Shown here one piece after another: positions 1-62,361 of a stretch of 64,000 nt of DNA; the stretch's first letter is position 1, and each line of letters opens with the position of its first letter. The DNA lies in the IMG/VR virus record IMGVR_UViG_3300017971_000224, positions 40,104-104,103 of that record. One strand, 5' to 3'. The notes beneath the pieces were generated by a model. That model did no database searches. It had not been told where the DNA came from and saw only the letters and a program-made list of their open reading frames with translations. The translations under genes were made by a program, and so were the position numbers. Source of the stretch: a virus.

Positions 1-522
<522 letters not shown>

Positions 523-19313: not shown

Positions 19314-19484
19314 ATGACCAGAATTCTTGGTTTGTTGTTGGTTTTTGTCGGTCTTTTGTTAGGTTGTCCGAAGAAAAGTGCCGTGAAACCGGCGGATGAA
19401 GAGCCGCAGCTCAAGGTGGATGGCGGGAAAGTTGAATCTCCACAGAAAGCGGAGATCGCGAAGGAAGATGCGGGGAAGAAATAG
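19314..19484 (+). CDS. small lipoprotein
   Basis: 56 residues after an AGGAGG ribosome site. Signal peptide MTRILGLLLVFVGLLLGC with a lipobox LLGC; the mature part is short and charged (K, E, D). Likely a membrane-anchored lipoprotein such as a superinfection or lysis accessory, which is inference. Its TAG stop ends one base before the convergent tRNA-Gln gene. Confidence 0.8.
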   Translation: MTRILGLLLVFVGLLLGCPKKSAVKPADEEPQLKVDGGKVESPQKAEIAKEDAGKK

Positions 19485-19557
19485 CAGGGGTGGGAGGGTT
19501 CGAACCCCCGGCCCCCAGGACCAAAACCTGGTGTTCTACCAACTGAACTACACCCCT
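19485..19557 (-). tRNA. tRNA-Gln (TTG)
   Basis: Acceptor AGGGGTG pairs fully; anticodon loop TTTTGGT; T-loop TTCGAAC. No encoded CCA. It abuts the convergent lipoprotein stop, and its first bases overlap the MazG stop codon. Confidence 0.93.
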
Positions 19558-19888
19558 ATCTGTTATCACCACTTCCATTTAGTGCATCTCGTTGTTTTCT
19601 AGATGCTAATTTTTGTAGATTTTCAAATGCAACTCCTTCCATGTCTAAACCGAGCTCAGTACACATAGCAGCTATGTACCAAAGAACGTCACCAAGTTCT
19701 TTGCTTATTTCTCTTATTTTATCAGGAGTCATTATTCCATTGTTGTCACGTAATACTTTCTTTACTTTCTCGGCTACTTCTCCGGCTTCTCCCGTAAGAC
19801 CAAGAACAGGATAAATATAGTTATTATAACGATTTGGATATTTGGCTGTTTCGAATGCACCTTCTTGATAATCGCGAAAACTTAGCAT
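19556..19888 (-). CDS. MazG-like nucleotide pyrophosphohydrolase
   Basis: 110 residues, start ATG after AGGAGA. The all-alpha NTP pyrophosphatase motifs are GEAGEVAEKVKK and ELGDVLWYIA (E-x-x-E and E-x-x-D metal ligands). It hydrolyses NTPs or, in some phages, alarmones. It sits inside the tRNA cluster with its stop in tRNA-Gln. Confidence 0.9.
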   Translation of the reverse strand: MLSFRDYQEGAFETAKYPNRYNNYIYPVLGLTGEAGEVAEKVKKVLRDNNGIMTPDKIREISKELGDVLWYIAAMCTELGLDMEGVAFENLQKLASRKQRDALNGSGDNR

Positions 19889-19908
19889 GTTTTATCTCCT
19901 TATGTGAA

Positions 19909-19996
19909 TGGCGGAAGGGGAGGGATTCGAACCCCCGGAGCTTTTACACCCTCTTGTTTTCAAGACAAGTACCATAAGCCGCTCGGTCACCCTTCC
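19909..19996 (-). tRNA. tRNA-Ser (TGA)
   Basis: Class II with a long variable arm; acceptor GGAAGGG, G discriminator, loop CTTGAAA. The 3' CCA is encoded. Confidence 0.93.
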
Positions 19997-20008
19997 ACAA
20001 GAACAAGA

Positions 20009-20093
20009 CGGAAGGTAGAGGATTCGAACCTCTGGAGCTGTTACACCCTCACGCTCTCCAAGCGCGCGCCTTAAACCGCTCGGCCAACCTTCC
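20009..20093 (-). tRNA. tRNA-Ser (GGA)
   Basis: Class II, acceptor GGAAGGT, anticodon loop TTGGAGA, long variable arm, G discriminator, no encoded CCA. Confidence 0.93.
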
Positions 20094-20101
20094 AAGATGA
20101 T

Positions 20102-20186
20102 CGGAAGAGAGAGGATTCGAACCTCTGAGGCTGTTACACCCACTTGTTTTCGAGACAAGCGCCTTCAACCACTCGGCCACTCTTCC
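20102..20186 (-). tRNA. tRNA-Ser (CGA)
   Basis: Class II, acceptor GGAAGAG, anticodon loop CTCGAAA, long variable arm, no encoded CCA. Confidence 0.93.
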
Positions 20187-20187
20187 A

Positions 20188-20275
20188 TGGCGGAAGGTAG
20201 AGGATTCGAACCTCTGGAGCTGTTACACCCGCTGGTTTAGCAAACCAGTGCCTTCAACCTCTCGGCCAACCTTCC
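20188..20275 (-). tRNA. tRNA-Ser (GCT)
   Basis: Class II, anticodon loop TTGCTAA, long variable arm, CCA encoded. With TGA, GGA and CGA it makes four adjacent serine isoacceptors with near-identical bodies, pointing to local duplication. Confidence 0.93.
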
Positions 20276-20415
20276 CTTGTATTATATTTGTGAGATTTTC
20301 TAATTCTTTGATTGTGAAATCAATTATATCTACCATTTCTTGTTGTGTTTTGCCAAGGCACAGCTGCCTAGTGAAACATTCGATCATAATTTTTGCTTGT
20401 TTGGTCCCCATAGTT

Positions 20416-20490
20416 TGCCCCTGGAAGGATTCGAACCTTCACTGCGCGGTGCTTGAAACCGCTGTCTCTACCAAGTTGGACTACAGGGGC
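20416..20490 (-). tRNA. tRNA with Leu anticodon CAA, short variable arm
   Basis: Acceptor GCCCCTG, loop TTCAAGC, A discriminator. The variable region is only GCAGT (5 nt), not the long arm expected for bacterial leucine tRNAs. Confidence 0.88.
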
Positions 20491-20545
20491 ATGATAACAA
20501 AAACAGCTTGACAATATCAGTGACTCAGTTATTATGGCGGCTTCG

Positions 20546-20599
20546 AAACACCGTAACCATCTTCTGCAGGCGCCCTGGAGAAACGTGGTTACGGTGTTT
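20546..20599 (-). other. long hairpin between tRNAs
   Basis: Perfect 14-bp inverted repeat (20546-20559 with 20586-20599) whose loop folds further (TTCTGCAG with CTGGAGAA, one mismatch). No T-tract. It may be an RNase III-type processing site in the tRNA precursor. Confidence 0.6.
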
Positions 20600-20604
20600 T
20601 GCTT

Positions 20605-20679
20605 TGCCCACCCTGAGATTCGAACTCAGACTTTCACGGACCTGAACCGTGTCCCTCTACCAAGTTGGGGTAGGTGGGC
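20605..20679 (-). tRNA. tRNA with Leu anticodon CAG, short variable arm
   Basis: Acceptor GCCCACC, loop TTCAGGT, variable region AAAGT, A discriminator, no CCA. Its 5' end abuts the structured RNA element at 20680. Confidence 0.88.
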
Positions 20680-20916
20680 TGGGGAAGGTACTGGTCGGAT
20701 TCTCACCGGCGGTCCACCGATAGGGCCATGGTGGTCACTCACCCAGTGCGTTACCGGGAGTTGCTTATTCTGGCCCATAGCGCGACCCGTCGCGCACGCA
20801 GTACCACAGGAAATGCAGCAGCGGGACACCCCGGCGTCAGGATCTTGAGGCATCGGAACCGGGTCTAACATCCTCAAGTCTGTGTCCAGGCCACCTCGAC
20901 CTCTCGACTGCTGCGA
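20680..20916 (-). ncRNA. unidentified structured RNA, 237 nt
   Basis: It fills the space between two tRNAs exactly. Nested perfect helices: domain 1 has 20815-20821 with 20908-20914 (7 bp), 20824-20829 with 20882-20887 (6 bp) and 20844-20850 with 20872-20878 (7 bp). Domain 2 has GGTACTG 20687-20693 with CAGTACC 20799-20805 (7 bp), 20723-20728 with 20771-20776 (6 bp), and the GCGCGA/TCGCGC hairpin at 20780-20795. Clearly GC-richer than its surroundings. It does not match RNase P, tmRNA, 6S or riboswitch cores that I know. Strand is assumed from the flanking tRNAs. Confidence 0.65.
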
Positions 20917-21001
20917 TGTGCGGGGGAGGATTCGAACCTCCATGTTTAGCCTGAGGCGGCAGGTTTACAGCCTGCTGGTTTCACCGTTCACCCACCCGCA
21001 C
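20917..21001 (-). tRNA. tRNA-Tyr (GTA)
   Basis: Class II with a 17-nt variable arm, acceptor GTGCGGG, loop CTGTAAA, A discriminator, no encoded CCA. Confidence 0.92.
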
Positions 21002-21010
21002 ATAAATCAA

Positions 21011-21083
21011 TACTCGTGCAGGGATTCGAACCCCGAACATCCTGGTCCTAAGCCAGGCGCCTCTGCCGTTGGGCTACACGAGC
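21011..21083 (-). tRNA. tRNA with Leu anticodon TAG, short variable arm
   Basis: Acceptor GCTCGTG (G1-T72 wobble), loop CTTAGGA, variable region ATGTT, A discriminator. Confidence 0.88.
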
Positions 21084-21122
21084 AAATGAGGTAATGAAAT
21101 GTCGAAAGGAGGTAAAAAATCA

Positions 21123-21207
21123 GGTACTGGCAGGATTTTGGCTACCTGCGGTATGGTCTCTTGACCCTGCTTTGTGGCAGTCGACACCCGTGCCGATCCG
21201 CAGTACC
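21123..21207 (-). ncRNA. second structured RNA element sharing ends with the 237-nt RNA
   Basis: The 85-nt segment is closed by GGTACTG (21123-21129) and CAGTACC (21201-21207), the same helix as in domain 2 of the element at 20680, with the same flanking bases (GGATT after the first arm, CGCAGTACC at the other end). Internal GGTC-TCTT-GACC and GGCA/TGCC hairpins are possible. No protein is evident in 21084-21210. Confidence 0.5.
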
Positions 21208-21210
21208 TTT

Positions 21211-21489
21211 CTAGAACTTCTTCCCTCTACGCGCTTGGTGCTTTTGCCAACGTTTCCTCTGGCGCTCGAGGAAATCGTTTTTCAATGGCGCGAGCTCCTC
21301 CAGCACGATGTGGGAAGAGGTTTGGCTATCTTCAGAAAAAACCAACACCGTATCTTGATTTATATACGTTGTTGATTCTTTACACCACATACATTCTTGT
21401 ACCCTTATTCTCTGGTATTCGTCAATATAAACATTAAGCTGTGCGCCACAAACATTGCAATAATATTGTTTTGGTTCAATAGCTATCAT
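21211..21489 (-). CDS. zinc-ribbon protein
   Basis: 92 residues. The N-terminus has YYCNVCGAQLNVYI followed by ECMWC (two CxxC). The C-terminal half is helical and basic. Its ATG overlaps the upstream stop by 4 bases (ATGA). Confidence 0.72.
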   Translation of the reverse strand: MIAIEPKQYYCNVCGAQLNVYIDEYQRIRVQECMWCKESTTYINQDTVLVFSEDSQTSSHIVLEELAPLKNDFLERQRKRWQKHQARRGKKF

Positions 21490-21722
21490 TTCTTTTTCTC
21501 AATCTTTTTCATGACTTTCGCCATTCTTTTCTCTTGACCGTGAAAACATTTCATGATCTTTTTTAGTGCCTTTTTTGGGTTGTGGTGCATTATCTTACAA
21601 TGTGTGCTTTGTTCTTCAGCTACCCATTTTTGATCTTTTTCGTGCCAGAAGACAGAGAATTGGTAGTTTTTTAAGAGAGGATATTTCACTACACAGGCTC
21701 CACATCCCAAGCGACCATACAA
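21486..21722 (-). CDS. hypothetical small basic protein
   Basis: 78 residues or fewer; the ATG lies two bases before the 3' end of tRNA-Thr, so a later start is possible. The C-terminus is Lys-rich (MAKVMKKIEKKK). FSVFWHEKDQKWVAEE resembles a small beta domain. Unknown role. Confidence 0.55.
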   Translation of the reverse strand: MYGRLGCGACVVKYPLLKNYQFSVFWHEKDQKWVAEEQSTHCKIMHHNPKKALKKIMKCFHGQEKRMAKVMKKIEKKK

Positions 21723-22492
21723 GAGCCAGTGAGAGGAATCGAACCCCCAACATCTTCATTACAAGTGAAGCGCTCTACCGATTGAGCTACACTGGCATAC
21801 TCAAAATCACCACGTTCGATCGCCTCGAGATGTTTGATTGAAGGACGGCATTGGTTCAATGATTTGTTGTTGTTCAATACACTCGTTGCAATCTTCGAGA
21901 TAATATCCGGATCCGTCCAATATGACTGGCCTTTTTTCAATCTCAATTTCCGCACATGGTAACGGACAGCAGATTCTGACAGCTCTGTGACTCTGCAGAT
22001 TTCTTTGACGGTAATTGTACCTGATTTCCAGATTATACCCATTGCTCTGCATTTTATTTCGATTGCTTTTCTGCTTCTTCCAAGGCGTTTGGATGCATAT
22101 TTCAATGGCATTCTTCCGGCGAGAAAAAGTAGTAAATCTTCTTCTTTTTTTGTCCATGGTTTTACCTTAATGCCATGTCTTGATGGCATTATTTGTGCTT
22201 TCAAACCAAGTTTTTGAAGTTTGGTCCCAACAGCATTAATAGATCTATTCAGTTTTTCTGATATTTGTTTTTTTGTATGTGTTGGTAGAAGTTTTTTTAG
22301 TTGTTGAATTTCTTCATCAGACCACGGTGGATTATGTTTTAATTTTGCTATACCAAGTTGATTGACTTTGTTTTGTATTACTTTATGGCTTCTATCTAAA
22401 GCTTCTGCAATTTCTTTTATTGATCTACGACCATGCCAATATCGTATGTAGTCGTATTCTTCTTCAGTGAATCTTCTTGAATTATCACCCAT
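21689..22492 (-). CDS. repeated HTH (Myb/SANT-like) DNA-binding protein
   Basis: Up to 267 residues. It contains three tandem helix-turn-helix units with shared phrasing (IKEIAEALDRS, KQISEKLNRSINAV, LKYASKRLGRSRKAI), each preceded by a Trp/acidic helix (PPWSDEEI, KPWTKKEED), and a fourth HTH (TVKEICRVTELSESAVRYH). Such proteins bind DNA as arrays. Oddly, the frame runs through the whole tRNA-Thr gene (21724-21796) before stopping; the last ~40 residues are translated tRNA and may be an artefact or a readthrough tail. Confidence 0.75.
   Translation of the reverse strand: MGDNSRRFTEEEYDYIRYWHGRRSIKEIAEALDRSHKVIQNKVNQLGIAKLKHNPPWSDEEIQQLKKLLPTHTKKQISEKLNRSINAVGTKLQKLGLKAQIMPSRHGIKVKPWTKKEEDLLLFLAGRMPLKYASKRLGRSRKAIEIKCRAMGIIWKSGTITVKEICRVTELSESAVRYHVRKLRLKKGQSYWTDPDIISKIATSVLNNNKSLNQCRPSIKHLEAIERGDFEYASVAQSVERFTCNEDVGGSIPLTGSCMVAWDVEPV
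21724..21796 (-). tRNA. tRNA-Thr (TGT)
   Basis: Acceptor GCCAGTG pairs perfectly, loop CTTGTAA, T-loop TTCGATT. It lies wholly inside the 3' end of the HTH gene frame. Confidence 0.93.
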
Positions 22493-22494
22493 GA

Positions 22495-22623
22495 TTATTC
22501 TTCACATTCATCGCAGATTTTTATATCTTTTTTAGCTTCTTTTTTTGTTAATTTATCACCGCAATATAAACAACATTTTGGATGTGGTCTATTGTAATCT
22601 TTTTTCTTTGTTTTCTTTTCCAT
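22495..22623 (-). CDS. mini zinc-ribbon protein
   Basis: 42 residues starting MEKKTKKKDY, with two knuckles (CCLYCGD and ICDECEE) flanking a Lys-rich linker. It ends just upstream of the HTH gene start and is probably co-transcribed with it. The ribosome site is weak. Confidence 0.55.
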   Translation of the reverse strand: MEKKTKKKDYNRPHPKCCLYCGDKLTKKEAKKDIKICDECEE

Positions 22624-22639
22624 TATTTTACTCGCAGTC

Positions 22640-22677
22640 CCAACCCGCCCCCTACTACAACTTCAGGGGCGGGTTGG
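22640..22677 (-). terminator. 12-bp GC-rich hairpin
   Basis: CCAACCCGCCCC (22640-22651) and its perfect complement (22666-22677) around a 14-nt loop. No U-tract on either side, so it may be a processing or stability element and not a classical terminator. The surrounding 22624-22740 has no gene. Confidence 0.5.
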
Positions 22678-22740
22678 AATGTGCCCACGGAGGGGAAGGC
22701 ACACATGCAGTATAACCGAGTCTCGTCTCATACAAAATGA

Positions 22741-22814
22741 TCCGGGTAGAAGGACTCGAACCTCCGACTTCCTGGTCCCAGGCCAGGAGCGCTACCAATC
22801 TGCGCCATACCCGG
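22741..22814 (-). tRNA. tRNA-Pro (TGG)
   Basis: Acceptor CCGGGTA, stem CCTGG, loop CCTGGGA. Position 33 is C where U is almost universal. No encoded CCA. Confidence 0.9.
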
Positions 22815-22818
22815 TCGA

Positions 22819-22893
22819 TGTCCGTCCTGGGATTCGAACCCAGACTGGCAGCGCCCTCAACGCTGTTCCTCTACCTTGTTGGGATAGACGGAC
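22819..22893 (-). tRNA. tRNA with Leu anticodon GAG, short variable arm
   Basis: Acceptor GTCCGTC, loop TTGAGGG, variable region CCAGT, A discriminator. Confidence 0.88.
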
Positions 22894-23144
22894 TAGAATG
22901 CCAGAGTTGGTGGTGTTCCATTGGTGAAGTACTCATACCATTCTTCTAACCAATCTCTTCTCACATCATCTGGCTCAATTAATCTCCATGGTTTATTGCC
23001 TGTTTCTGGTTCTGGTGGCATTAACTTACAACAGAACACAGGGCAATATCTGCATATTGCTGATTGTCCATATTCATTAATCTCATGTATATATAAACAA
23101 TCTTCCGGACAATTATCAGGAAATTCTAATCCTTGAATATGCAT
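22893..23144 (-). CDS. Cys-rich hypothetical protein
   Basis: 83 residues; cysteines at CPEDCLYIH and CRYCPVFCCKL suggest an Fe-S or zinc site. AAAGGA lies before the ATG. The stop codon shares one base with the 5' end of tRNA-Leu(GAG). Function unknown. Confidence 0.7.
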   Translation of the reverse strand: MHIQGLEFPDNCPEDCLYIHEINEYGQSAICRYCPVFCCKLMPPEPETGNKPWRLIEPDDVRRDWLEEWYEYFTNGTPPTLAF

Positions 23145-23146
23145 TG

Positions 23147-23653
23147 TTATTCCTTTGGTCTTGGATATCTTTGTATTGATACACTTGCTTTTCTTCTTGT
23201 CTCATGTTCATAACATTTGATGCAGATGCTGTGAGGCCAGTCGCCAACTCGTCTGAGTAGTGATACGAGACATGCGATTTCGGCTTTGGCGTTGTACGGT
23301 AGTAATATGTTTGGAGGCTTCTTGATGGTTATGGCTTTGCCAGTACTGCCGATGATTAGCAGCCCCCAGTTATCTGGGACTTCATGTTTTTCAATGATCC
23401 CCGCTGGTGCACAGTAGTAGCGGATTCTACCCATCCCCATCTCAGTCTTCTTCCTAAAGCTCTTTTTTTTGTCCTTTAGGAAATCAGATCTTGAGATCTT
23501 GCATTCAATAACTACGCTCACATTGCTACCAAATGCAAGTACGTCTGGTGACTCACGTGTCGTGCTAACAATTTCTGTTATCACAACTGGATATTTTTTC
23601 TTGGCCCAGCGTGCAGCTTTTGCGATGACTTGTTCATGTGTGTAAGTGTACAT
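23147..23653 (-). CDS. PD-(D/E)XK-like nuclease or holliday-type endonuclease fold
   Basis: 168 residues from ATG 23653; an upstream GTG at 23668 overlaps the promoter box. It has SPDVLAFGSNVSVVIECKIS, the D...ECK active-site pattern, followed by SDFLKDKKKSFRK. It resembles small phage restriction-like nucleases (MmcB/VRR type). It ends in QRYPRPKE, a PRPK tail. The TGGTATATA box lies at 23659, so the leader would be very short. Confidence 0.7.
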   Translation of the reverse strand: MYTYTHEQVIAKAARWAKKKYPVVITEIVSTTRESPDVLAFGSNVSVVIECKISRSDFLKDKKKSFRKKTEMGMGRIRYYCAPAGIIEKHEVPDNWGLLIIGSTGKAITIKKPPNILLPYNAKAEIACLVSLLRRVGDWPHSICIKCYEHETRRKASVSIQRYPRPKE

Positions 23654-23658
23654 GTATG

Positions 23659-23667
23659 TATATACCA
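23659..23667 (-). promoter_or_regulatory. TGGTATATA box
   Basis: Matches the shared 9-mer and reads leftward toward the nuclease gene, only 6 bp from its ATG, which implies a near-leaderless transcript or a later start. Confidence 0.5.
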
Positions 23668-23681
23668 CAACGCTGAATTTT

Positions 23682-24245
23682 TTATTGAGTTTTTGGTCTT
23701 GGATATCTTTTTATTGGCCTGGGGTATCTTTTTATTTTTGCATTAAGTTCTTTTTTCTTACCGCCATTCCATAATTTGTTTTGACAAATATATCCTATAG
23801 TAGACAAATGCACTCCATATATTGATGCAATGTATTTTAATGTATTACCATGTGTACGTAGTGTCTTAATCTCTTCAACGTCTTGTTCAGATAATTTAGC
23901 ACTTGGATTTTTAGAACCCACTAATGAACGTTGATCAAGTATCATGTCATTCATATTATCTTGATGTGTGCCGATGATTAAATGTTTTGGGTTACAGCAC
24001 AATGTATTATTGCATGTGTGTCGCACACACATACCACTTGGGATTGGTCCATTGACATCTTCATACACAAGTCTGTGGGCCCTATACCATTTGCGATGTT
24101 TTTTTGAATAGTATACTTTGAACTCACCATAGTAGTTGTTAGTGCGACCCGATCTGGACTTCGCACCAGTCCATAACCAACATTCGTTAGGACCGCGCTG
24201 TTCTATCTTCTCCCATATGCGTTTGTGTATCTCTTTGTCGATCAT
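23682..24245 (-). CDS. HNH endonuclease, free-standing, with C-terminal HTH and PRPK tails
   Basis: 187 residues. HNH core: YRAHRLVYED, CVRHTCNNTLCCNPKHLIIGT. An HTH follows (LSEQDVEEIKTLRTHGNTLKYIASIYG, then LSTIGYICQ). Typical of homing endonucleases spread through phage genomes, here inside a tRNA cluster. The C-terminus carries two copies of KRYPRP. Part of this tail has DNA similarity to that of the neighbouring nuclease (23147). Confidence 0.9.
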   Translation of the reverse strand: MIDKEIHKRIWEKIEQRGPNECWLWTGAKSRSGRTNNYYGEFKVYYSKKHRKWYRAHRLVYEDVNGPIPSGMCVRHTCNNTLCCNPKHLIIGTHQDNMNDMILDQRSLVGSKNPSAKLSEQDVEEIKTLRTHGNTLKYIASIYGVHLSTIGYICQNKLWNGGKKKELNAKIKRYPRPIKRYPRPKTQ

Positions 24246-24277
24246 TGTTGACTCTTTCTACTTGTTGGTATCAATCT

Positions 24278-24286
24278 AATATACCA
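24278..24286 (-). promoter_or_regulatory. TGGTATATT box
   Basis: One mismatch to the shared 9-mer, 32 bp upstream of the HNH ATG and reading leftward. Confidence 0.5.
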
Positions 24287-24342
24287 CTAAAGTAAAAAGA
24301 ATTCTTATACTTATGGGAGTTGAACTTCCGAGTCGAACCCGT

Positions 24343-24416
24343 TGCCACGGGAGGGATTCGAACCCTCACTTATGCGATTTTAAGTCGCATGCCTCTACCA
24401 GTTGGGCTACTGTGGC
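24343..24416 (-). tRNA. tRNA with Leu anticodon TAA, short variable arm
   Basis: Acceptor GCCACAG with an A6-C67 mismatch, loop CTTAAAA, variable region TAAGT, A discriminator. Just 3' of it (24301-24342) there are two T-arm-like fragments, possible tRNA remnants. Confidence 0.85.
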
Positions 24417-24421
24417 GTGAA

Positions 24422-24554
24422 TCGGGAGAGGTGGAATCGAACCACCGACCTGGGAGCTCCATATGCTGAAGTGGCGTCTTAGTTCCATGTGTGAGGCACG
24501 AGCGTTAGTTTAGACGTCACTTACATCCCCGCTCTACCACTGAGCTATCTCCCG
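24422..24554 (-). tRNA. tRNA-like gene with 61-nt insert in the anticodon loop
   Basis: 133 nt. Acceptor CGGGAGA, D-arm GCTC/GAGC and T-arm GGTGG-TTCGATT-CCACC are intact, A discriminator. The anticodon stem halves are GGGAT and CTCCC (T31-C39 mismatch), separated by 68 nt instead of 7. The insert closes on itself with an 11-bp stem with one mismatch (24469-24479 with 24512-24522) and carries TTCAGCATA at its 3' end. If it splices after U33 the anticodon would be TGG. It could also be a non-coding tRNA mimic. Confidence 0.6.
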
Positions 24555-24559
24555 AAAGG

Positions 24560-24700
24560 TGGACGGGCTAGGATTCGAACCTAGAAAAACTATGCTGAAA
24601 CAACTTCTGAGTTCTCAATCGTATTGAGTGATGAAAGAAATTGTTGTTGCTTGCGTTGCTAGCTCTATAGGCTAGTGCCTTACCATTTGGCTACCCGTCC
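24560..24700 (-). tRNA. tRNA-like gene with 69-nt insert in the variable region
   Basis: 141 nt. Acceptor GGACGGG, D-arm GCC/GGC, T-arm CTAGG-TTCGAAT-CCTAG. A full anticodon arm CTAGC-CTATAGA-GCTAG is present (nominal ATA, an unusual A34). Then come 69 extra nucleotides ending in TTCAGCATA before the TTTTT variable loop. The insert holds an AACAAC/GTTGTT closing stem (24599-24604 with 24643-24648) and a CTCAAT-CGT-ATTGAG hairpin. Removing it restores a perfect 72-nt cloverleaf. Confidence 0.6.
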
Positions 24701-24701
24701 A

Positions 24702-24778
24702 TGGTGGGGGCAATAGGACTCGAACCTATAGCCATCTGCTTGTAAGGCAGACACTCTGCGCAATTGAGTTATGCCCCC
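24702..24778 (-). tRNA. tRNA-Val (TAC)
   Basis: Acceptor GGGGGCA, loop CTTACAA, CCA encoded. Confidence 0.93.
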
Positions 24779-24786
24779 ATGGGTTG

Positions 24787-24859
24787 TGGACCAGGGCGGA
24801 ATTGAACCGCCGACTCGAGGCTCTTCAGGCCCCAGCTCTACCTACTGAGCTACCGGTCC
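24787..24859 (-). tRNA. tRNA-Phe (GAA)
   Basis: Acceptor GGACCGG (one G-T), stem GGGGC, loop CTGAAGA, A discriminator, no CCA. Confidence 0.92.
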
Positions 24860-24916
24860 ACAAGATTCGTATTCAGTTTTCAAAGACTAAACATCAACGG
24901 ATTGCCGAAGATGTTT

Positions 24917-24993
24917 TGGCGGGCCCAACGGGATTCGAACCCGTGTTACCGGCGTGACAGGCCAGCGTGCTAACCTGGCTACACTATGAGCCC
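24917..24993 (-). tRNA. tRNA-Asp (GTC)
   Basis: Acceptor GGGCTCA, loop CTGTCAC, G discriminator, CCA encoded. Confidence 0.93.
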
Positions 24994-24997
24994 ATAC

Positions 24998-25183
24998 CTA
25001 CAGAATTCTGAGTTCCTTCCTACGAACCCATTGTTCTGTTCCATCCTTCCATCGAACCTTTACTGACTGCATCTTAGTAGTGCCTTTTCCATCTAGTACT
25101 CGACCGGTCTTACCGTTCTTACGGTGCTCTACAATAGTCGAGCCGTGAGTCAGCCAGTGATATCTTCTTTTCCCATCACTCAT
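24998..25183 (-). CDS. small SH3/KOW-like protein
   Basis: 61 residues. A compact beta pattern ending TKMQSVKVRWKDGTEQWVRR resembles small SH3-barrel proteins. It overlaps the upstream gene by 8 bases. Function unknown. Confidence 0.65.
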   Translation of the reverse strand: MSDGKRRYHWLTHGSTIVEHRKNGKTGRVLDGKGTTKMQSVKVRWKDGTEQWVRRKELRIL

Positions 25184-25433
25184 GGCGTATGTCTTCTGAC
25201 ATCTTCTCTTCGTCTTTTTTTCTCTTCGCTCGTACCATGTGTTCGGGGATCGCTATCATCGACACACTGATCTGTGGCCCTTTCTCTCCGAACTTCCAAA
25301 TCTCGTTCTGGATGATGGTATGTAGCCGTCCGATCTCTTTCGGCGTAAACCATTCACAGTCCTGAGTTTCGGCACAGAAATGCACACGATGGTATAACGG
25401 CTCGTCTCTTTTTATGTTTTTCCCAATACCCAC
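25176..25433 (-). CDS. hypothetical protein
   Basis: About 85 residues. GTG 25433 is favoured because AGGAG lies at proper spacing; GTG 25436 is too close. It contains an HRVHFCAETQDCEWF segment and a Lys/Glu-rich C-terminus. No family recognised. Confidence 0.65.
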   Translation of the reverse strand: MGIGKNIKRDEPLYHRVHFCAETQDCEWFTPKEIGRLHTIIQNEIWKFGEKGPQISVSMIAIPEHMVRAKRKKDEEKMSEDIRHE

Positions 25434-25475
25434 CACATCTCCTTTCAGAAGTACGGCGGGGTACTTCTGAAATTT

Positions 25476-26342
25476 TCAATCCACCCAGGCCACACCTTCC
25501 ATGCGGCCCTCGTTGGACTCGGTATTGCGAATCACCTTGCGCCAGCTCTTGAACGACACCGTCTTGTGCTCCGGGTGCCGCACCTTCCCGCGCACGAAGA
25601 TCTCCCGCCCCCTGATCGAGTAGCCATGCTCGAGGCGCACTCCATCAGCGACGATCAGCTCTTCTGCCACGTGCTGGTTCCCACCACCTCCACGTCTTCC
25701 TCGCCTGGCTGCGGCGATGTCGACTTTCCTTTGCACCAGGCCTTTGCCTACCGCTTCGTCGATATTGGCCTGCTCGTTGGCGTCCACGTTGAGGAAGAAC
25801 CATTCTCCCTGGCGGATGGTACGCCCCATCTGCTTGCCTTCGTACAGCCACACGGTCGGAGCCTTGAGTCTGTCGTGGGCCCGCTGGACCGTTGGTGCCG
25901 CTTCTGGCAGCTGGGCGATGAACAATTGTCTTTCGTCCACACCCAACAGAAAGTGGCGTTTGTTGCTCGATGTGCGCCGACGGACAACCACACGCCCCTT
26001 CTTCAGACGGCGCACGATGTCTCGCTGTGGCACTTCACGCGCGACGTACTGGCCCACCTCCTCGGTGAATTCCCGGGCCTTTTCGTGGACCATCAACACC
26101 AGTTGACTGAGTTTTTTGTCGGTGTTGATCACCTGGATGTTCACCTCTTCGCCAGGCCAGATCCTGAAGTATTCGCTGCGCCAGTTGCCCTTGATCTTGC
26201 GCTGGATGTCCATGCCGAACACAGCGCGGTTGACACCTCGGCCACCGACAGGATTGTCTGTGATTTCCAACTTGAGACCGGCCTTCGCGAATTGCGAGAC
26301 CAGCGACTCGCACATGATTCTGAACTGACCCTTCATCAACAT
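25476..26342 (-). CDS. hypothetical protein, GC-rich gene
   Basis: 288 residues after AAAGGA. Mixed alpha/beta with a basic middle (RRLKKGRVVVRRRTSS) and a Gly/Arg loop (RRGRRGGGGN). No domain recognised. Clearly GC-richer than adjacent genes, suggesting a different origin. The long frame on the opposite strand is a composition shadow. Confidence 0.75.
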   Translation of the reverse strand: MLMKGQFRIMCESLVSQFAKAGLKLEITDNPVGGRGVNRAVFGMDIQRKIKGNWRSEYFRIWPGEEVNIQVINTDKKLSQLVLMVHEKAREFTEEVGQYVAREVPQRDIVRRLKKGRVVVRRRTSSNKRHFLLGVDERQLFIAQLPEAAPTVQRAHDRLKAPTVWLYEGKQMGRTIRQGEWFFLNVDANEQANIDEAVGKGLVQRKVDIAAARRGRRGGGGNQHVAEELIVADGVRLEHGYSIRGREIFVRGKVRHPEHKTVSFKSWRKVIRNTESNEGRMEGVAWVD

Positions 26343-26357
26343 CTTGTGTCCTTTTGA

Positions 26358-26429
26358 CGAGCGGCTAAGGAATCGAACCCTACAGACGGTCGGGTTTGGA
26401 GCCCAACCCGCTTACCCAGAGCGCCGCCC
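26358..26429 (-). tRNA. tRNA-Trp (CCA)
   Basis: Acceptor GGGCGGC (one G-T), loop CTCCAAA identical to bacterial Trp tRNAs, G73. The D-arm is irregular (GCT/AGC only) and the variable region 7 nt; an alternative GGGTT/AACCC stem is possible. No encoded CCA. Confidence 0.75.
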
Positions 26430-26431
26430 AA

Positions 26432-26507
26432 TGGCTCCAGGGGTGGGGCTCGAACCCACGGCCAGCGACTTAACAGGCCGCCGCTCTACCAGCTGAGCTA
26501 CCCTGGA
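26432..26507 (-). tRNA. tRNA-Asn (GTT)
   Basis: Acceptor TCCAGGG, stem GCGGC, loop CTGTTAA, G discriminator, CCA encoded. Confidence 0.92.
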
Positions 26508-26510
26508 ACA

Positions 26511-26545
26511 GGCGCAGCTCTTACCAATTGAACGGGCTACTAAGT
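26511..26545 (-). pseudogene. 5'-half tRNA remnant
   Basis: Reading leftward, TAGCCCGTTCAATTGGTA AGAGC resembles a tRNA acceptor end and D-arm but no anticodon or T-arm follows before tRNA-Asn. The rest of 26546-26700 has no convincing gene. Confidence 0.45.
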
Positions 26546-26700
26546 CGATCTGACCCGGACAATAAGTCCGAATATGGCAGAGAAAAGGAGGTTGTGGTTT
26601 GGACCATGAACGTGACGCTGGTTGTAGTTTTCATGGCATCCTCCTGTGGGATCATTCGATCCTATCACCCACCATCGGCAAAGCACAACTCAAAATATAA

Positions 26701-26889
26701 TTATTTTCTAATTATTTTTGGCGATGGGGTTGGGGATAATGATTGTTGATTGGACTCTTCTTCAAGTTCTTGAGTACATTGCTCACAAACAACTATATGC
26801 ATACCATCATAAGGCATGAATTTATATGGAGGATTTCCGCATAATTCGCACGGCACTGCGCATTCAACATTTATTTTGTCTGTTGCCAT
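26701..26889 (-). CDS. zinc-ribbon hypothetical protein
   Basis: 62 residues after AGGGG; CELCGN and CEQC knuckles about 20 apart, then a Ser/Pro-rich tail. It overlaps the end of the membrane protein gene by 19 bases. Confidence 0.7.
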   Translation of the reverse strand: MATDKINVECAVPCELCGNPPYKFMPYDGMHIVVCEQCTQELEEESNQQSLSPTPSPKIIRK

Positions 26890-27377
26890 GGTTTCCCCTC
26901 ATCAAGAACATGTTGTTGTATTTCCTTGAACGTGACTTGTGGTTTTTCACCGGATTTAAACATAGTAGATGTCGGAGTTGGTTTTGTTATAGTAACTAGT
27001 TTTTTATCATGTGATGATTCTTCAGCTACGCATTGGCTATCCTGGCATTCGTGCATTACGGGACAGTCGCTATCCGATTGACATTCTCCCATGAATGCTC
27101 TGATTGCATCAGGTTCATCAGCTGCTGACACCGGCATCATAGGTGCCGCTGTATTCATTTGAAGTTTTATTTCATACATTAGATCTTTTAGTTCATCATG
27201 TTTTTCATTTAGTTTAGATATTTCTTGTGTTGAATAATTAAATAAACTATGAAGCATTAATTCATTTTTACTGTCACTTTTGATTGCAGCTATTAATGCA
27301 GCTATTGCTGTAATCAATGCTGGTATAGATACTAGAATATTTTTTGAGCCGCTGACTTTTTTCTCCTTATCAGACAT
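26871..27377 (-). CDS. membrane protein with Cys-knot-like motif
   Basis: 168 residues after GGAGGG. One transmembrane helix (NILVSIPALITAIAALIAAI, residues 13-32), a coiled region (ISKLNEKHDELKDLMYEI) and then CQSDSDCPVMHECQDSQCV, a small disulphide-rich motif common in Myxococcota envelope proteins. A membrane-anchored protein with a coil and an exported Cys module is likely; a spanin-like role is possible but unproven. Confidence 0.75.
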   Translation of the reverse strand: MSDKEKKVSGSKNILVSIPALITAIAALIAAIKSDSKNELMLHSLFNYSTQEISKLNEKHDELKDLMYEIKLQMNTAAPMMPVSAADEPDAIRAFMGECQSDSDCPVMHECQDSQCVAEESSHDKKLVTITKPTPTSTMFKSGEKPQVTFKEIQQHVLDEGKPWQQTK

Positions 27378-27442
27378 ATCATCCCTCCTTGTGCTGATTT
27401 AATCGTTATAGTATCACAATAAGTAATCAGTACCAGGAGTAA

Positions 27443-27515
27443 CGCGTCCGGCAGGATTCGAACCCGCGTAGTTCTGATTAGAAGTCAGATGCCTGATCCC
27501 CTAGGCTACGGACGC
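27443..27515 (-). tRNA. tRNA-Arg (TCT)
   Basis: Acceptor GCGTCCG, loop CTTCTAA, G discriminator, no CCA. Confidence 0.93.
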
Positions 27516-27595
27516 GAAAGAAGTGGTGATAGCCGCCCACATCACTATCACCCGCACAAGCCCCAACCGAACCAAATGCTTGCACATCCCTGTAA

Positions 27596-27669
27596 CACGC
27601 CCGGCAGGATTCGAACCTGCGACCTCCTGGCCCGCAACCAGGCACGCTATCCAACTGCGCTACGAGCGC
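27596..27669 (-). tRNA. tRNA-Arg (GCG)
   Basis: Acceptor GCGCTCG (one G-T at each of two pairs), stem CCTGG, loop TTGCGGG, G discriminator. Confidence 0.9.
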
Positions 27670-27860
27670 TCGTCTTCGTCGATGAAGACTGTATTTTTTG
27701 GAAGTTTTTTTAGACTGAATGGTAACTCTTGATGATAATCCTCTGGTGGGAAAATACCCACAGGTATAAGAGTTTGTGTTGTAGCTGTCATCACTTCGTG
27801 GTCACCATACCCATCTTCGATGAGTTCAGTGATTCTTTGGTGTAGTTCCGATAGTGTCAT
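27660..27860 (-). CDS. hypothetical protein
   Basis: 66 residues from ATG 27860 (AGGTG upstream); a longer frame to 27890 lacks a ribosome site. LHQRITELIEDGYGDHEVMTATTQ recalls small phage proteins of unknown role. Its last 10 bases lie in tRNA-Arg(GCG). Confidence 0.65.
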   Translation of the reverse strand: MTLSELHQRITELIEDGYGDHEVMTATTQTLIPVGIFPPEDYHQELPFSLKKLPKNTVFIDEDERS

Positions 27861-27861
27861 T

Positions 27862-28845
27862 TTACGCACCTGCTGAGCACAGAGACACATAAGGGTAGCC
27901 TTGCCGTTCCTTATACAGAATTTGCCCAGCCAGTTGTTGGTTGGCTACAGTCGCCACACTCATCTTGGGCAGTCTGCTGTCGGCTGCACCTTCTGACAGC
28001 AGCGGCTGTTGTGTCACGTGTTCGATCGTTTTTTCGCTCAGCAGTTTGACCTGCGCATTGGCGTTTTTCAGTGCGCGGTGAATACCAGCCAGCGATTTGA
28101 CCTCCACGCTCATGGGCACAAAGAATTTTGACGCTTGCCTGTGCCGCTTTTGATACTGAATTGCGAGTGAGCCGTAGCAGACTCTTATCAGTGGTTCCCA
28201 CACACGTTCCCAGAACGCCATGTTTGGAGCGCGTTCGACACCAACCACGTTTTCTCCCAGCAAGATGATGGCACCAATTTGTTTTGGCACCAACTCAAAC
28301 TCAGCTACGAACTCATCCAGCTGCTTTTCAAAGTGCTTCAAGAAGTAAGTGAGGTGGCCACCAGTATGTGGCACTCCACTTTCTTTGTTCAGACTTCTGA
28401 TGTGCGGCCAGATCTTGTCATAACCTTGTCTGTGTCTCATACTGAGAGCATGAGATCGTATTGATGCTGGCAATACCAACATGGTGATCGCTTTCTGGTC
28501 TCTGATGTAACCACCTTGGCTGTCCTCGATGCACATGGCTGTCTCGATGGACTTGCGGCCGTTTGCTTTGACCAAAAACGCGCTTGGCACAGCGTGGTCT
28601 TGTGCACGTTCTCTTGTCACCCAACCAGCACCTGTCGGTACGATGCTTGGTCGTGTGCTGTCTGTATTGCGCACTTGAACCGTACCATAGTTCGATGTTT
28701 CCACATGGAAGTCTGGTGGTGCGAAGTCGTCATCTTGCGCGTCGCCCTCGTCGATGAGCGGGATGACAGACATGTGGCCCACGGTTTGGGTTCTGCCACG
28801 TCCCATTCCTCTGAGGATTTCTTCGACTGTGAGGTTGCGTGTCAT
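27862..28845 (-). CDS. ARPP-1 (DUF6569)-like protein
   Basis: 327 residues. Features fit the ARG-and-rhodanese-associated family: a beta-rich start (MSVIPLID), a glycine-rich block (IVPTGAGWVTRERAQDHAVP), CIEDSQGG, an LPASIRSHA segment, and near the end KQIGAIILLGENVVGVERAP followed by WERVWEPLI. Molecular function is unknown. It overlaps the TROVE-like gene (28842) by ATGA, so the two are translationally coupled. Confidence 0.72.
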   Translation of the reverse strand: MTRNLTVEEILRGMGRGRTQTVGHMSVIPLIDEGDAQDDDFAPPDFHVETSNYGTVQVRNTDSTRPSIVPTGAGWVTRERAQDHAVPSAFLVKANGRKSIETAMCIEDSQGGYIRDQKAITMLVLPASIRSHALSMRHRQGYDKIWPHIRSLNKESGVPHTGGHLTYFLKHFEKQLDEFVAEFELVPKQIGAIILLGENVVGVERAPNMAFWERVWEPLIRVCYGSLAIQYQKRHRQASKFFVPMSVEVKSLAGIHRALKNANAQVKLLSEKTIEHVTQQPLLSEGAADSRLPKMSVATVANQQLAGQILYKERQGYPYVSLCSAGA

Positions 28846-30455
28846 GACAGTGCCTTTCTCGTCTCAACTGACCCCAGGGCCAGACGTAGTAGGGCGTTGA
28901 TTCCATTCACTGGCTCTGCCTCGATCATCCCTCGGATGAAGGTGGCTGTGAGCTGCCCAGGTTGCTGCACTGGCATTGTTGGTACACCGTCGTTGGGCGC
29001 CAGCTCACGTGCACCTTTCGACTCGGCAGCGAACACCGGGTTTAAATGATACACAGGCGTATCAATACCGATCTCCCGCACGTGGTGCATGACCTCAGCG
29101 AAGCGCCCGGCTGGTGCATTCTCGTATCCGTCGCTGATCACGAACACAGCCTCGGGTTCGTCGTTCAGCGCCTCCACCAAGCTGTCAGCAATGGCTGTGT
29201 CACCCATCGGACGGACGAGACCATCGCCAGCTTCGATGTCTGTACCACTGACATGGTACTCCTGACTCTCATCACCGGTGTGCAACAGGGTGTCGCGCAT
29301 GGCCAAGGCCACCGCCAGGGGTCGCAGTGGTTGGCTGCGGTGACCAGCCATCGATTGTGACGCGTCCACGATGACGGCCACCGATTTGTAGCGCGTTGGG
29401 AACATCGCTGCGGTCTCCTTCGCCTTCTCGTCCAAGGCGTTCGCAATCTCTTGCGTCAGCCCACACTCGAACGCGTAGAGGTATAGGCGCACAGCGTCGT
29501 ACTTCGTCGGGTCCATGTCGACTTCGACGTTTGCGCGCTTTGCTCTTTTCTGTACTGCCATCTTCTGGTGGCCGGTGAGCTTGCCGCCCTTGGCCACAAG
29601 TTTCAGCACATCCTCCTTCTTCGTGTCGGGGTGGTATGTGCTTCTCAGGCCCTCCAGGACCTCCAGAGGAAGTTTAGAGCCAGCCTTGATATCTTCCTTC
29701 GCTTTTTCAAACGAAACGAAGAGAGGCAGGCTCAGGCGTTCACGCACGTCCAGGATGAAGCCCACGCACTCGAGCACTTCCTTGTATCTGTTCAGCTGGC
29801 AGTGCTTCCGGATGTTCTGCTCGAGAATCGTTAGCTCCTTCTTCTTTCGGTAACGCCCACCCTTCTTCAGGATCGATCCGATGATTGATGTTAGCCGTAG
29901 GCCCCAGGCGTGGGTCAGTGCCGCCCGCATTTTTGTCCTGTACTTCACCGACCAGAGTTGCAGTCTCGGGCTCGAGAGCAGCGTGCGCAGGATCAGTTTT
30001 CTTGTCCTGGCGTTGTTCGCCTTCTTCAGACCCAGGGATGCATCACCCACCCGCAGTCCATCGATCAGCTTCAACATGCGCTGTGGTGGCAGAGCTTGGA
30101 ACAGGTGGTACAGCACCATGCGTTCTTGTCCCGGCTCGAGGAACGCTTGTTCCACGCCGTTCCGGGGGAATGACAGCAGCTTCTTCATACCGATCTGCAC
30201 GCTGCGGTCGGTCAACCCTGGCAGCGTCAACAGCACGGCGTATACGTCCCTCTCCAGGCCAAAGAGTTCGTCGTGCACACGCAGTTCGGCAGCCTGTTGT
30301 TCGGCGCGCGTGTTGTAGTGCGTCGCGCGCCCCATGGAGCTGACAGCTGTGTCCAGGAATGAGCAGACGGATTTGCTCATCTTCTTCACAGCAGTCTTGT
30401 TCCGTGGCATCCACAGCAGCTGTTCATTCGAGTGCGTTTGCACCAACGTATTCAT
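28842..30455 (-). CDS. TROVE/Ro60-like protein with vWA domain
   Basis: 537 residues. N-terminal ~330 residues are helical repeats in the manner of the TROVE module (LPLEVLEGLRSTYHPDTKKE, KLTGHQKMAVQKRAK). C-terminal vWA domain with MIDAS ligands VDASQSMAG (D-x-S-x-S), MGDTAIADS (T) and VFVISDGYE (D). Ro60 and its bacterial relatives bind Y RNAs and misfolded RNAs and help RNA degradation. Its position in a tRNA/structured-RNA region fits that role. The TROVE assignment rests on layout, not on a database match. Confidence 0.68.
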   Translation of the reverse strand: MNTLVQTHSNEQLLWMPRNKTAVKKMSKSVCSFLDTAVSSMGRATHYNTRAEQQAAELRVHDELFGLERDVYAVLLTLPGLTDRSVQIGMKKLLSFPRNGVEQAFLEPGQERMVLYHLFQALPPQRMLKLIDGLRVGDASLGLKKANNARTRKLILRTLLSSPRLQLWSVKYRTKMRAALTHAWGLRLTSIIGSILKKGGRYRKKKELTILEQNIRKHCQLNRYKEVLECVGFILDVRERLSLPLFVSFEKAKEDIKAGSKLPLEVLEGLRSTYHPDTKKEDVLKLVAKGGKLTGHQKMAVQKRAKRANVEVDMDPTKYDAVRLYLYAFECGLTQEIANALDEKAKETAAMFPTRYKSVAVIVDASQSMAGHRSQPLRPLAVALAMRDTLLHTGDESQEYHVSGTDIEAGDGLVRPMGDTAIADSLVEALNDEPEAVFVISDGYENAPAGRFAEVMHHVREIGIDTPVYHLNPVFAAESKGARELAPNDGVPTMPVQQPGQLTATFIRGMIEAEPVNGINALLRLALGSVETRKALS

Positions 30456-30618
30456 AGCATCACCTCTCCCGTGGAGTTCTCCATCAAATTGTTTGTGGAG
30501 GAAAGGAAAGATCTAGCGGTAATTACGGAAGCTGGGTCTTTGACATAAACTATTTGTCTGAACCAGCATCACAGTTCCCGCTAAAAGAAATGGTTGAGTC
30601 AATTAGAGCATCACGTTT

Positions 30619-30692
30619 TCTAAGTGACTGGACTTGAACCAGCTACCTACGGTTTTCAGGACCGTTGCTCTTTCCAACTGAGCTACACTAAA
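30619..30692 (-). tRNA. degenerate tRNA, anticodon TGA, short variable arm
   Basis: Acceptor TTTAGTG/CACTTAG with a T-T mismatch, D-arm GCTC/GAGC, stem ACGGT, loop CCTGAAA with C33, variable region AGGTA, A discriminator. Nominally Ser(TCA), but not the class II shape of the other serine tRNAs. Upstream lies a repeated leader (see repeat at 30693). Confidence 0.6.
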
Positions 30693-30757
30693 GTGACCCT
30701 CAAGTTCTCAACCAAAACAAGGCGTTTAAAGCGAGGGAAGTAGGACATCACGATTGA

Positions 30758-30830
30758 GTGAAAGAGAAGGATTTGAACCTTCAACCTTCGGCTCTGCATG
30801 CCGATGCTCGACCACTCGAGCTGTCTTCCT
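30758..30830 (-). tRNA. tRNA-Cys (GCA)
   Basis: Stem TCGGC, loop ATGCAGA, T-arm GAAGG-TTCAAAT-CCTTC. Acceptor AGGAAGA pairs at six of seven positions and the discriminator is C, so it may be degenerate. Confidence 0.78.
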
Positions 30831-30859
30831 AAAGTGACCTCCAAGTTCTCGCTAAAAAA

Positions 30860-30868
30860 TATATACCA
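30860..30868 (-). promoter_or_regulatory. TGGTATATA box upstream of tRNA-Cys
   Basis: Exact copy of the shared 9-mer, 29 bp before the tRNA-Cys 5' end and reading leftward. Confidence 0.55.
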
Positions 30869-30939
30869 CAGGTGCTCGAACTTTTCGCAAGTTTTTTTCT
30901 TATTTTTTCACTTTTTCTTCCATAATATATTGGGTGGAA

Positions 30940-31013
30940 TGCCCCCGGTGGGATTTGAACCCAACGTTGCCGGATTGAAAGCCCGGTGTCCTACCCGTTT
31001 GAACGACGGGGGC
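30940..31013 (-). tRNA. tRNA-Glu (TTC)
   Basis: Acceptor GCCCCCG pairs fully, loop CTTTCAA, A discriminator, no encoded CCA. Confidence 0.93.
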
Positions 31014-31019: not shown

Positions 31020-31742
31020 TTATTCTGCAATTGCGTCGTTGATCGCTGCATATATTTCATCTTTTGCTCTTGCTATTTTATAGTATGGAACATGGAAAAA
31101 TTCAGCTAGATGATTATTACGTATCACAAATTCAAATGGCAAATTGGATATGAGGCCTACGTGGCGTTCACGCATTTTTTGAATACGATCGTTTTTAATT
31201 TTATTCACCAGCTCTTCTGGTGGTGTGAGTAGTGAATGTAGGACACGCCGTGCAAAAGGTTTTAATCTTTTTTCTGTGTGTTCTAATATTTCTTTGTATC
31301 TATAATCCCATTTTGCTTGGCATGAATATGGATATGATTTGATTTTATCGACTGAGATATCTTGGTTTTTCATTACCTCAATTTTTACATGTTGTTTTGG
31401 ATCTTTAGGTGTGTATTTAGAATCTTTTCTAAATGCTGTCACAGCAGTATTTAAGAAGTTTTTGCGTGCTATATACATACACCAAGTTTTGATTGATGCG
31501 CGTGTCTCATCATATTTGTCTAGATTCTTAAACATTTTTAAATATGCTTCTTGAACAAGATCTTCTTTATCTATAAATGACGGTATAGATACTTTCCCAG
31601 CTTCACGCATAAGGAATGGCCGCAACTCTTGAATAGTTTTGAGGAATAGCTGTTTTCTTTCGTCAGTGACTGTGAATTTTTTCTGGCGTGGATAGAGTTT
31701 CGGGCGTGGGCGGAGCTTCGGGCGTGGTTTTCTGACAATCAC
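31020..31742 (-). CDS. RNA polymerase sigma factor (sigma-70 family, ECF-like)
   Basis: 240 residues, GTG start behind GGAGGG. Region 2 is clear (KEDLVQEAYLKMFKNLDKY, ASIKTWCMYIARK). Region 4 is less clear; a charged helical C-terminus follows. The N-terminus has three tandem basic proline units (RKPRPKL, RPRPKL, YPRQKK). With 13297 this gives two sigma-like proteins, suggesting phage-specific promoters. Confidence 0.8.
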   Translation of the reverse strand: MIVRKPRPKLRPRPKLYPRQKKFTVTDERKQLFLKTIQELRPFLMREAGKVSIPSFIDKEDLVQEAYLKMFKNLDKYDETRASIKTWCMYIARKNFLNTAVTAFRKDSKYTPKDPKQHVKIEVMKNQDISVDKIKSYPYSCQAKWDYRYKEILEHTEKRLKPFARRVLHSLLTPPEELVNKIKNDRIQKMRERHVGLISNLPFEFVIRNNHLAEFFHVPYYKIARAKDEIYAAINDAIAE

Positions 31743-61377: not shown

Positions 61378-61602
61378 TTACCTCTCGATCGTATCGCCAG
61401 CTGGAATAACTTCTACTTCTATATATGGAAAATGTTTTTTTACATACGCCACACCACATCTATATGCAACATCAAACGATAATGTAAGTGGTTCTATACT
61501 GACGTGCGCCGGGAATGGAGAAGGAAAATTAGTTTTTAAAAAGACTTTGTCAGTTGCGTGTGCCAGTATAACTGTGGCTTTAACAAATCGTAGACCGTAC
61601 AT
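61378..61602 (-). CDS. hypothetical protein
   Basis: 74 residues, beta-rich; overlaps the next gene by one base. Unknown. Confidence 0.66.
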   Translation of the reverse strand: MYGLRFVKATVILAHATDKVFLKTNFPSPFPAHVSIEPLTLSFDVAYRCGVAYVKKHFPYIEVEVIPAGDTIER

Positions 61603-62325: not shown

Positions 62326-62344
62326 GGCGATAACCTCCGACGGT

Positions 62345-62353: not shown

Positions 62354-62361
62354 CAATGCCT

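What the first reader, a model, noticed from the sequence alone, without database searches (positions are those of the whole stretch)
20416..24416. All five leucine-anticodon tRNAs lack the long variable arm
CAA, CAG, TAG, GAG and TAA tRNAs have 5-nt variable regions although bacterial tRNA-Leu is class II. Ser and Tyr tRNAs in the same cluster keep long arms. All five have A73. This may be a separate phage lineage of leucine acceptors, an evasion of tRNA-targeting defences, or re-assigned specificity.
Basis: partly seen in the sequence, partly recalled or inferred. Interest (0 to 1): 0.74.

Follow-up and report, generated by a model that had tools for sequence, protein, structure and literature searches.

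The report
Short-armed leucine tRNAs in a phage
The phage's five leucine tRNAs really do lack the long side arm that textbooks give to bacterial leucine tRNAs, but the same short form is common in other phages and is the only UUA/UUG-reading leucine tRNA found in the two Actinobacteria checked, so this is a genuine, under-described but not unique leucine tRNA type.

Summary
All five Leu-anticodon tRNAs (CAA, CAG, TAG, GAG, TAA) have 5-nt variable regions and A73, while clustered Ser (x4) and Tyr keep 16-17-nt arms; an independent 142,861-b contig carries identical copies. The premise that bacterial tRNA-Leu is always class II is wrong. Short-arm Leu tRNAs occur in over 100 IMG/VR stretches (8 of 41 Leu tRNAs in a class-unbiased viral sample), named isolates (Escherichia phage heid on K-12, Sf14, EFDG1, P59, Phendrix), mobile tRNA arrays, and chromosomes, where in Planktophila and Corynebacterium pelargi they are the only UUR readers found. 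All five window tRNAs keep the published E. coli LeuRS determinants (A73, A15:U48, G18G19, A20a) plus A14; 2 of 517 viral non-Leu class I tRNAs keep the five scored ones. With anticodon and variable region masked, a classifier assigns all five to the chromosomal class I Leu type (1 of 1304 viral non-Leu tRNAs). All six Leu codons align with leucine in homologues. Best reading: ordinary leucine acceptors charged by host bacterial-type LeuRS, which does not need the arm. Reassignment is not supported; defence evasion is possible but untested. The origin of the short-arm lineage is unresolved.

The parts
20416..20490 (-). tRNA-Leu(CAA), class I, variable region GCAGT, A73, no encoded CCA
20605..20679 (-). 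tRNA-Leu(CAG), class I, variable region AAAGT, A73, no encoded CCA
21010..21084 (-). tRNA-Leu(TAG), class I, variable region ATGTT, A73, no encoded CCA
22819..22893 (-). tRNA-Leu(GAG), class I, variable region CCAGT, A73, no encoded CCA
24343..24416 (-). tRNA-Leu(TAA), class I, variable region TAAGT, A73, no encoded CCA
19909..20275 (-). four class II tRNA-Ser genes (TGA, GGA, CGA, GCT) with 16-nt variable regions, internal control
20915..21002 (-). class II tRNA-Tyr(GTA), 17-nt variable region, internal control
19484..31013 (-). tRNA cluster of 23 ARAGORN genes in which the Leu tRNAs lie, interspersed with ORFs including an HNH endonuclease (23682-24245)

Best explanation
The five genes encode working leucine tRNAs of a short-variable-arm (class I) type that is shared between phages, mobile tRNA arrays and many bacterial chromosomes. 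They are charged with leucine by the host's bacterial-type LeuRS, which reads A73 and the D-loop/elbow core (A14, A15:U48, G18G19, A20a) and does not need the long arm. They form part of a large phage tRNA set that supplies decoding of all leucine codons during infection. Shown here: short arms, intact LeuRS determinants, unchanged meaning of Leu codons, same type as chromosomal sole UUR decoders. Inferred: expression, charging, and use in translation. Not resolved: whether the short form arose once or several times, and whether losing the arm itself brings an advantage.
For: The set A14+A15+U48+A20a+A73 is in 5/5 window Leu tRNAs versus 0/12 other class I tRNAs of the window, 2/517 viral and 0/55 bacterial non-Leu class I tRNAs; all five also have G18G19 and the Leu 3-bp D-stem. 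PMC9976931 section 12: in E. coli the arm and anticodon are not crucial, A73, A15-U48, G18G19 and A20a are, and variants without the arm stay active. In Planktophila versatilis (complete genome, 38 tRNAs) and C. pelargi (36 tRNAs read of about 48) Leu-TAA and Leu-CAA are class I and the only UUR readers found, so such bacteria must charge class I tRNA-Leu. Strict class I UUR pattern in 33 of 149 Actinomycetota genomes. A classifier with anticodon and variable region masked puts all five with chromosomal class I Leu; 1/1304 viral non-Leu tRNAs do so. All six Leu codons in RNR and DnaE score best as Leu against actinobacterial homologues. Escherichia phage heid, grown on K-12 whose six Leu genes read here are class II, carries only short-arm Leu tRNAs.
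Against: No expression or charging data. The determinants come from E. coli; the host and its LeuRS are unknown. A classifier trained on class II Leu only does not recognise class I Leu bodies (37 of 273 called Leu), and without the D arm the signal is lost, so the Leu call rests on the D arm, A73 and the anticodon rather than on the whole body. The pattern-found comparison sets were selected in part on CCAA, A20a and U48.
Confidence: 0.85

Rival explanations
1. Defence evasion: the short arm removes a handle used by host tRNA-attacking enzymes that recognise class II tRNAs, so phage Leu tRNAs survive when host Leu tRNAs are modified or cut.
For: [quoted passage not shown] Phage tRNAs evading anticodon nucleases is a published proposal (PMC10264068, listed). 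A phage on E. coli K-12 carries short-arm Leu tRNAs although the host's are class II.
Against: Ser and Tyr tRNAs in the same cluster keep long arms; the same short form is the ordinary chromosomal UUR tRNA in Actinobacteria; no Leu-specific arm-dependent toxin is known to me; most viral Leu tRNAs stay class II (33 of 41).
Confidence: 0.1
2. Neutral inheritance (sub-case of the best explanation): the phage acquired short-arm Leu tRNAs from a chromosomal or mobile-array source and the class has no functional consequence; bacterial LeuRS tolerates either form.
For: Same type on chromosomes, arrays and phages; LeuRS does not need the arm; class I and II Leu coexist in single phages such as Phendrix and EFDG1.
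Against: All five are short while about 80% of viral Leu tRNAs are long, which neutrality alone does not predict unless the set was acquired or copied together.
Confidence: 0.55
3. Reassignment: the tRNAs carry another amino acid and recode Leu codons, or cause mistranslation.
For: Short-arm bodies are unlike class II Leu overall.
Against: LeuRS determinants intact; all six Leu codons align with Leu; classifier errors point to no single other amino acid; the type is the sole UUR reader found in two bacteria.
Confidence: 0.03

Closest known systems
Chromosomal class I tRNA-Leu(UAA/CAA) of Actinomycetota (e.g. Planktophila versatilis, Corynebacterium pelargi)
   Same: Short variable region, A9, A14, A15:U48, A20a, 3-bp D-stem, A73; D arm TA-NNCCCAA..GGNAGAGG-like
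   Different: In the two genomes checked only UUR readers are short and CUN readers are class II; the phage has short forms for CUN as well
Short-arm tRNA-Leu of Ounavirinae phages (Escherichia phage heid, Shigella phage Sf14) and Herelleviridae (Bacillus phage P59, Enterococcus phage EFDG1)
   Same: TAG, CAA and/or TAA tRNA-Leu with 5-7-nt variable regions inside large tRNA clusters
   Different: One to three short Leu genes rather than five; EFDG1 also has a class II Leu-TAA
Mobile tRNA arrays (tRNA array units of mycobacteria; Microcoleus L236 and Actinomycete L225 arrays)
   Same: Large tRNA sets with short-arm Leu tRNAs; a short-loop tRNA-Leu(TAG) is reported in PMC6582537
   Different: Found in bacterial genome contigs; Leu-TAA of the Microcoleus array is class II
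Human mitochondrial tRNA-Leu(UUR)
   Same: Leucylated without a long arm, through A73 and A14 (PMC9976931)
   Different: Organellar, with a mitochondrial synthetase

Membership tests
tRNA-Leu (leucine isoacceptors of bacterial LeuRS) | Leucine anticodon | tested here: met
   CAA, CAG, TAG, GAG, TAA
tRNA-Leu (leucine isoacceptors of bacterial LeuRS) | A73, A14, A15:U48, G18G19, A20a | tested here: met
   5/5; determinants from PMC9976931
tRNA-Leu (leucine isoacceptors of bacterial LeuRS) | 3-bp D-stem with unpaired 13-22 and a 20a insertion | tested here: met
   5/5 for both; 7% and 37% respectively in viral non-Leu class I tRNAs
tRNA-Leu (leucine isoacceptors of bacterial LeuRS) | Charged with leucine | not testable with these tools
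   needs an aminoacylation assay
Class II tRNA-Leu (textbook bacterial form) | Variable arm of about 10 or more nt | tested here: not met
   5-nt variable regions in all five
Class II tRNA-Leu (textbook bacterial form) | G9 (empirical mark of class II Leu in the sets compared here) | tested here: not met
   A9 in 5/5; G9 in 33/33 viral Asn-anchored class II Leu
Chromosomal class I tRNA-Leu type | Body (anticodon and variable region masked) closest to chromosomal class I Leu | tested here: met
   5/5, margins 2.3-11.7 nats; 1/1304 viral non-Leu; not met once the D arm is also masked
Defence-evading phage tRNA | Altered target site or demonstrated resistance to a host tRNA-attacking enzyme | not tested
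   host unknown; anticodon loops of all five look ordinary

The most novel reading that the evidence does not exclude
The short form is selected in phages because it escapes host tRNA-attacking enzymes that grip the long arm of class II tRNAs (MenT-like), so phages keep Leu decoding going while host Leu tRNAs are disabled; a five-member class I Leu set would be the full version of this strategy.
Probability: 0.08. Interest if true: 0.75.

Novelty: new member of a known kind. Interest (0 to 1): 0.38.

Why it matters
A 2023 identity review still states that cytosolic tRNA-Leu carries a long variable arm (PMC9976931), yet short-arm Leu tRNAs are the only UUA/UUG readers found in two Actinobacteria and are common in phages, including one growing on E. 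coli K-12. That is a natural experiment on what LeuRS needs from its tRNA, a caution for class-based tRNA annotation and phylogeny, and it offers a laboratory system (Felixounavirus on K-12) to ask whether arm class affects infection or resistance to tRNA toxins.

Tried and rejected
Annotation or assembly artefact: rejected (Rfam, ARAGORN and an independent contig agree). Codon reassignment: rejected by the codon test. Phage-only lineage: rejected. Simple arm deletion from class II Leu: not supported, because position 9 and the D-stem sequence differ and a class II-trained classifier fails on class I bodies. Single origin of class I Leu: with 61 columns the tree needs 5 changes and one clade is not rejected (p-AU 0.277), but without the D arm it needs 19, so origin is unresolved. 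Host assignment: the search for related loci returned only near-identical copies, though it works from a few short peptides and can miss divergent relatives; phage hits to DnaE and SNF2 are under 60% identity and come from many hosts; NrdJ is 45-49% identical to Actinobacteria and 49% to one Deltaproteobacterium, so the host stays unknown. The first tRNA-Asn anchor pattern was off by one base and found one locus; it was repeated correctly. One script failed on a bad regular expression.

Full report
Observation. The window is positions 40104-104103 of a 104,103-b virus record. ARAGORN lists 23 tRNA genes between 19484 and 31013, all on the minus strand; the Rfam tRNA model finds most of the same genes plus one with a large insertion. 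The five Leu-anticodon genes have variable regions of exactly 5 nt and A73; the four clustered Ser genes have 16 nt and Tyr has 17. A pattern built on the D arm, class I spacing, Leu anticodon and T-loop hits these five only, with no hit in 100 shuffles. The five sequences recur unchanged in a 142,861-b contig with another IMG/VR sample number.

Is it exceptional? To avoid selecting for the answer, viral tRNA clusters were sampled through tRNA-Asn instead: of 41 parsed Leu tRNAs in that sample 8 were class I and 33 class II. In named phages, BLAST with one window tRNA and with a hand-made class I Leu consensus found similar sequences in 205 and 294 records; not all of these need be class I. 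Five were read in detail: Escherichia phage heid (host K-12 MG1655) has Leu TAG, CAA and TAA with 5-, 6- and 7-nt variable regions; Shigella phage Sf14 the same; Bacillus phage P59 two with 5 nt; Gordonia phage Phendrix two short and one long; Enterococcus phage EFDG1 one short and one long. My script's label for the 7-nt genes reads 'II' because of a cut at 6 nt; they have no long arm. The E. coli K-12 genes leuQ, leuP, leuV, leuX, leuZ and leuU have 13-15-nt arms; leuT and leuW were not read.

Chromosomes. All 38 tRNAs of Planktophila versatilis (complete genome) were read: Leu TAA and CAA are 74 nt, class I, and the only UUR readers, whereas Leu GAG and TAG are class II. In C. pelargi (36 tRNAs read of about 48 matches) the same split holds, with CAG, GAG and TAG class II. 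A strict class I UUR pattern hits 33 of 149 genomes drawn across the phylum; as it demands one exact D-arm form, this is a lower bound. Class I Leu(TAA) also lies in a Gly-Cys-Leu order like E. coli glyW-cysT-leuZ in a Rokubacteria MAG, and next to tRNA-Cys in a Deltaproteobacteria and a Planctomycetota MAG. So the short form is a normal cellular leucine tRNA in several lineages. Papers held here hardly mention it: a short-loop tRNA-Leu(TAG) in a mycobacterial tRNA cluster (PMC6582537), and a statement that Leu-2, 3 and 5 of M. tuberculosis have long loops, which implies that the others do not (PMC11541572). Absence elsewhere is only absence from this library.

How it works. The leucine identity review (PMC9976931) lists A73, the A15-U48 pair, G18G19 and A20a as E. 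coli determinants, says the long arm and the anticodon are not crucial, that tRNA-Leu variants without the arm stay active, and that sequence-specific reading of the arm is unique to Archaea. All five window tRNAs have all of these plus A14 and the Leu-type 3-bp D-stem. The combination A14+A15+U48+A20a+A73 occurs in 2 of 517 viral non-Leu class I tRNAs, 0 of 12 other class I tRNAs in the window and 0 of 55 in the two bacterial genomes, while class II Leu tRNAs share it (97% in the Asn-anchored viral set, 100% in the two genomes). What changes with the class is position 9: A in class I Leu, G in class II Leu. The core is class I in build with the leucine determinants kept.

Same type as the chromosomal ones? 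A naive Bayes classifier without anticodon, position 9 and variable region, trained on class II Leu only, fails on class I Leu (37 of 273 called Leu; other calls scatter over Arg, Tyr, Thr, Ile). This is a negative result for simple arm loss. When 90 chromosomal class I Leu tRNAs are added as a class, all five window genes fall into it, as do 106 of 162 viral class I Leu and 4 of 8 in the Asn-anchored set, but only 1 of 1304 viral non-Leu tRNAs. With the D arm masked the assignment is lost, so the signal is the D arm, where most LeuRS determinants also lie; shared ancestry and shared constraint cannot be told apart. Trees agree (5 versus 19 changes of class with and without the D arm).

Meaning of the codons. 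Phage RNR (876 aa) and DnaE (1228 aa) were aligned to actinobacterial homologues. Leu scored best for each of CTA, CTC, CTG, CTT, TTA and TTG (5 to 45 positions each); 55 of 61 codons agreed with the standard code, and the other six are non-Leu codons with 2 to 14 positions. There is no sign of recoding.

Function in the phage. The cluster in the window plus two Met, one Lys and one Val gene further along the longer contig give a large tRNA set. Supplying tRNAs when the host pool is unsuitable or degraded is the likeliest use; this is inference from gene content. None of the five Leu genes encodes CCA, so host CCA addition would be needed. The evasion idea deserves a test because MenT3 depends on a long loop, but the phage's clustered Ser and Tyr tRNAs keep theirs.

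Verdict. Real, correctly seen, and at odds with the textbook statement, but a new member of a widespread, poorly described kind rather than a new kind. The five-member set is the most extensive short-arm Leu set seen here; the Microcoleus array (L236) comes close with four short genes and one 12-nt arm, and an Actinomycete array (L225) has four.

Noticed in passing
window 24424-24556 and 24560-24700 (-): Two adjacent tRNA-like genes with 60-75-nt insertions, one in the anticodon arm and one after it; both inserts contain TTCAGCATA near their 3' end. Possibly intron-bearing tRNAs or tRNA mimics.
   Followed up: partly
window 30619-30692 (-): Class I tRNA with a Ser (TGA) anticodon, C33 and a weak acceptor stem, near tRNA-Cys; both are preceded by nearly the same leader GAGAACTTG(G)AGGGTCACTTTAG. 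SerRS would not be expected to charge it.
   Followed up: no
window 28842-30455 (-): 537-aa protein with a weak vWA-domain match in its C-terminal half and a 42% identical homologue in one 462-kb uncultured phage (LR756500.1), beside an ARPP-1 domain protein. Resembles Ro60/TROVE proteins by eye only.
   Followed up: partly
window 1036-4722 (+): DnaE-type DNA polymerase III alpha with an in-frame intein-like insertion (about residues 793-930; weak Pfam intein match).
   Followed up: no
window 23147-24245, 31020-31742, 61602-63399 (-): Recurring peptide (K/R)RYPRPK or close variants at ORF ends or starts, apparently from a dispersed DNA repeat at ORF boundaries.
   Followed up: no
window 25-522: Simple repeat giving an almost pure poly-aspartate ORF.
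   Followed up: no
L163, L167, L204: Class I Leu(TAA) beside tRNA-Cys in Planctomycetota, Rokubacteria (Gly-Cys-Leu order like E. coli glyW-cysT-leuZ) and Deltaproteobacteria MAG contigs, so the short form is not confined to Actinobacteria.
   Followed up: partly
L407 (viral, tRNA-Leu TAA): A short-arm Leu(TAA) tRNA with G15 and G48 instead of A15:U48, an exception to the determinant set.
   Followed up: no
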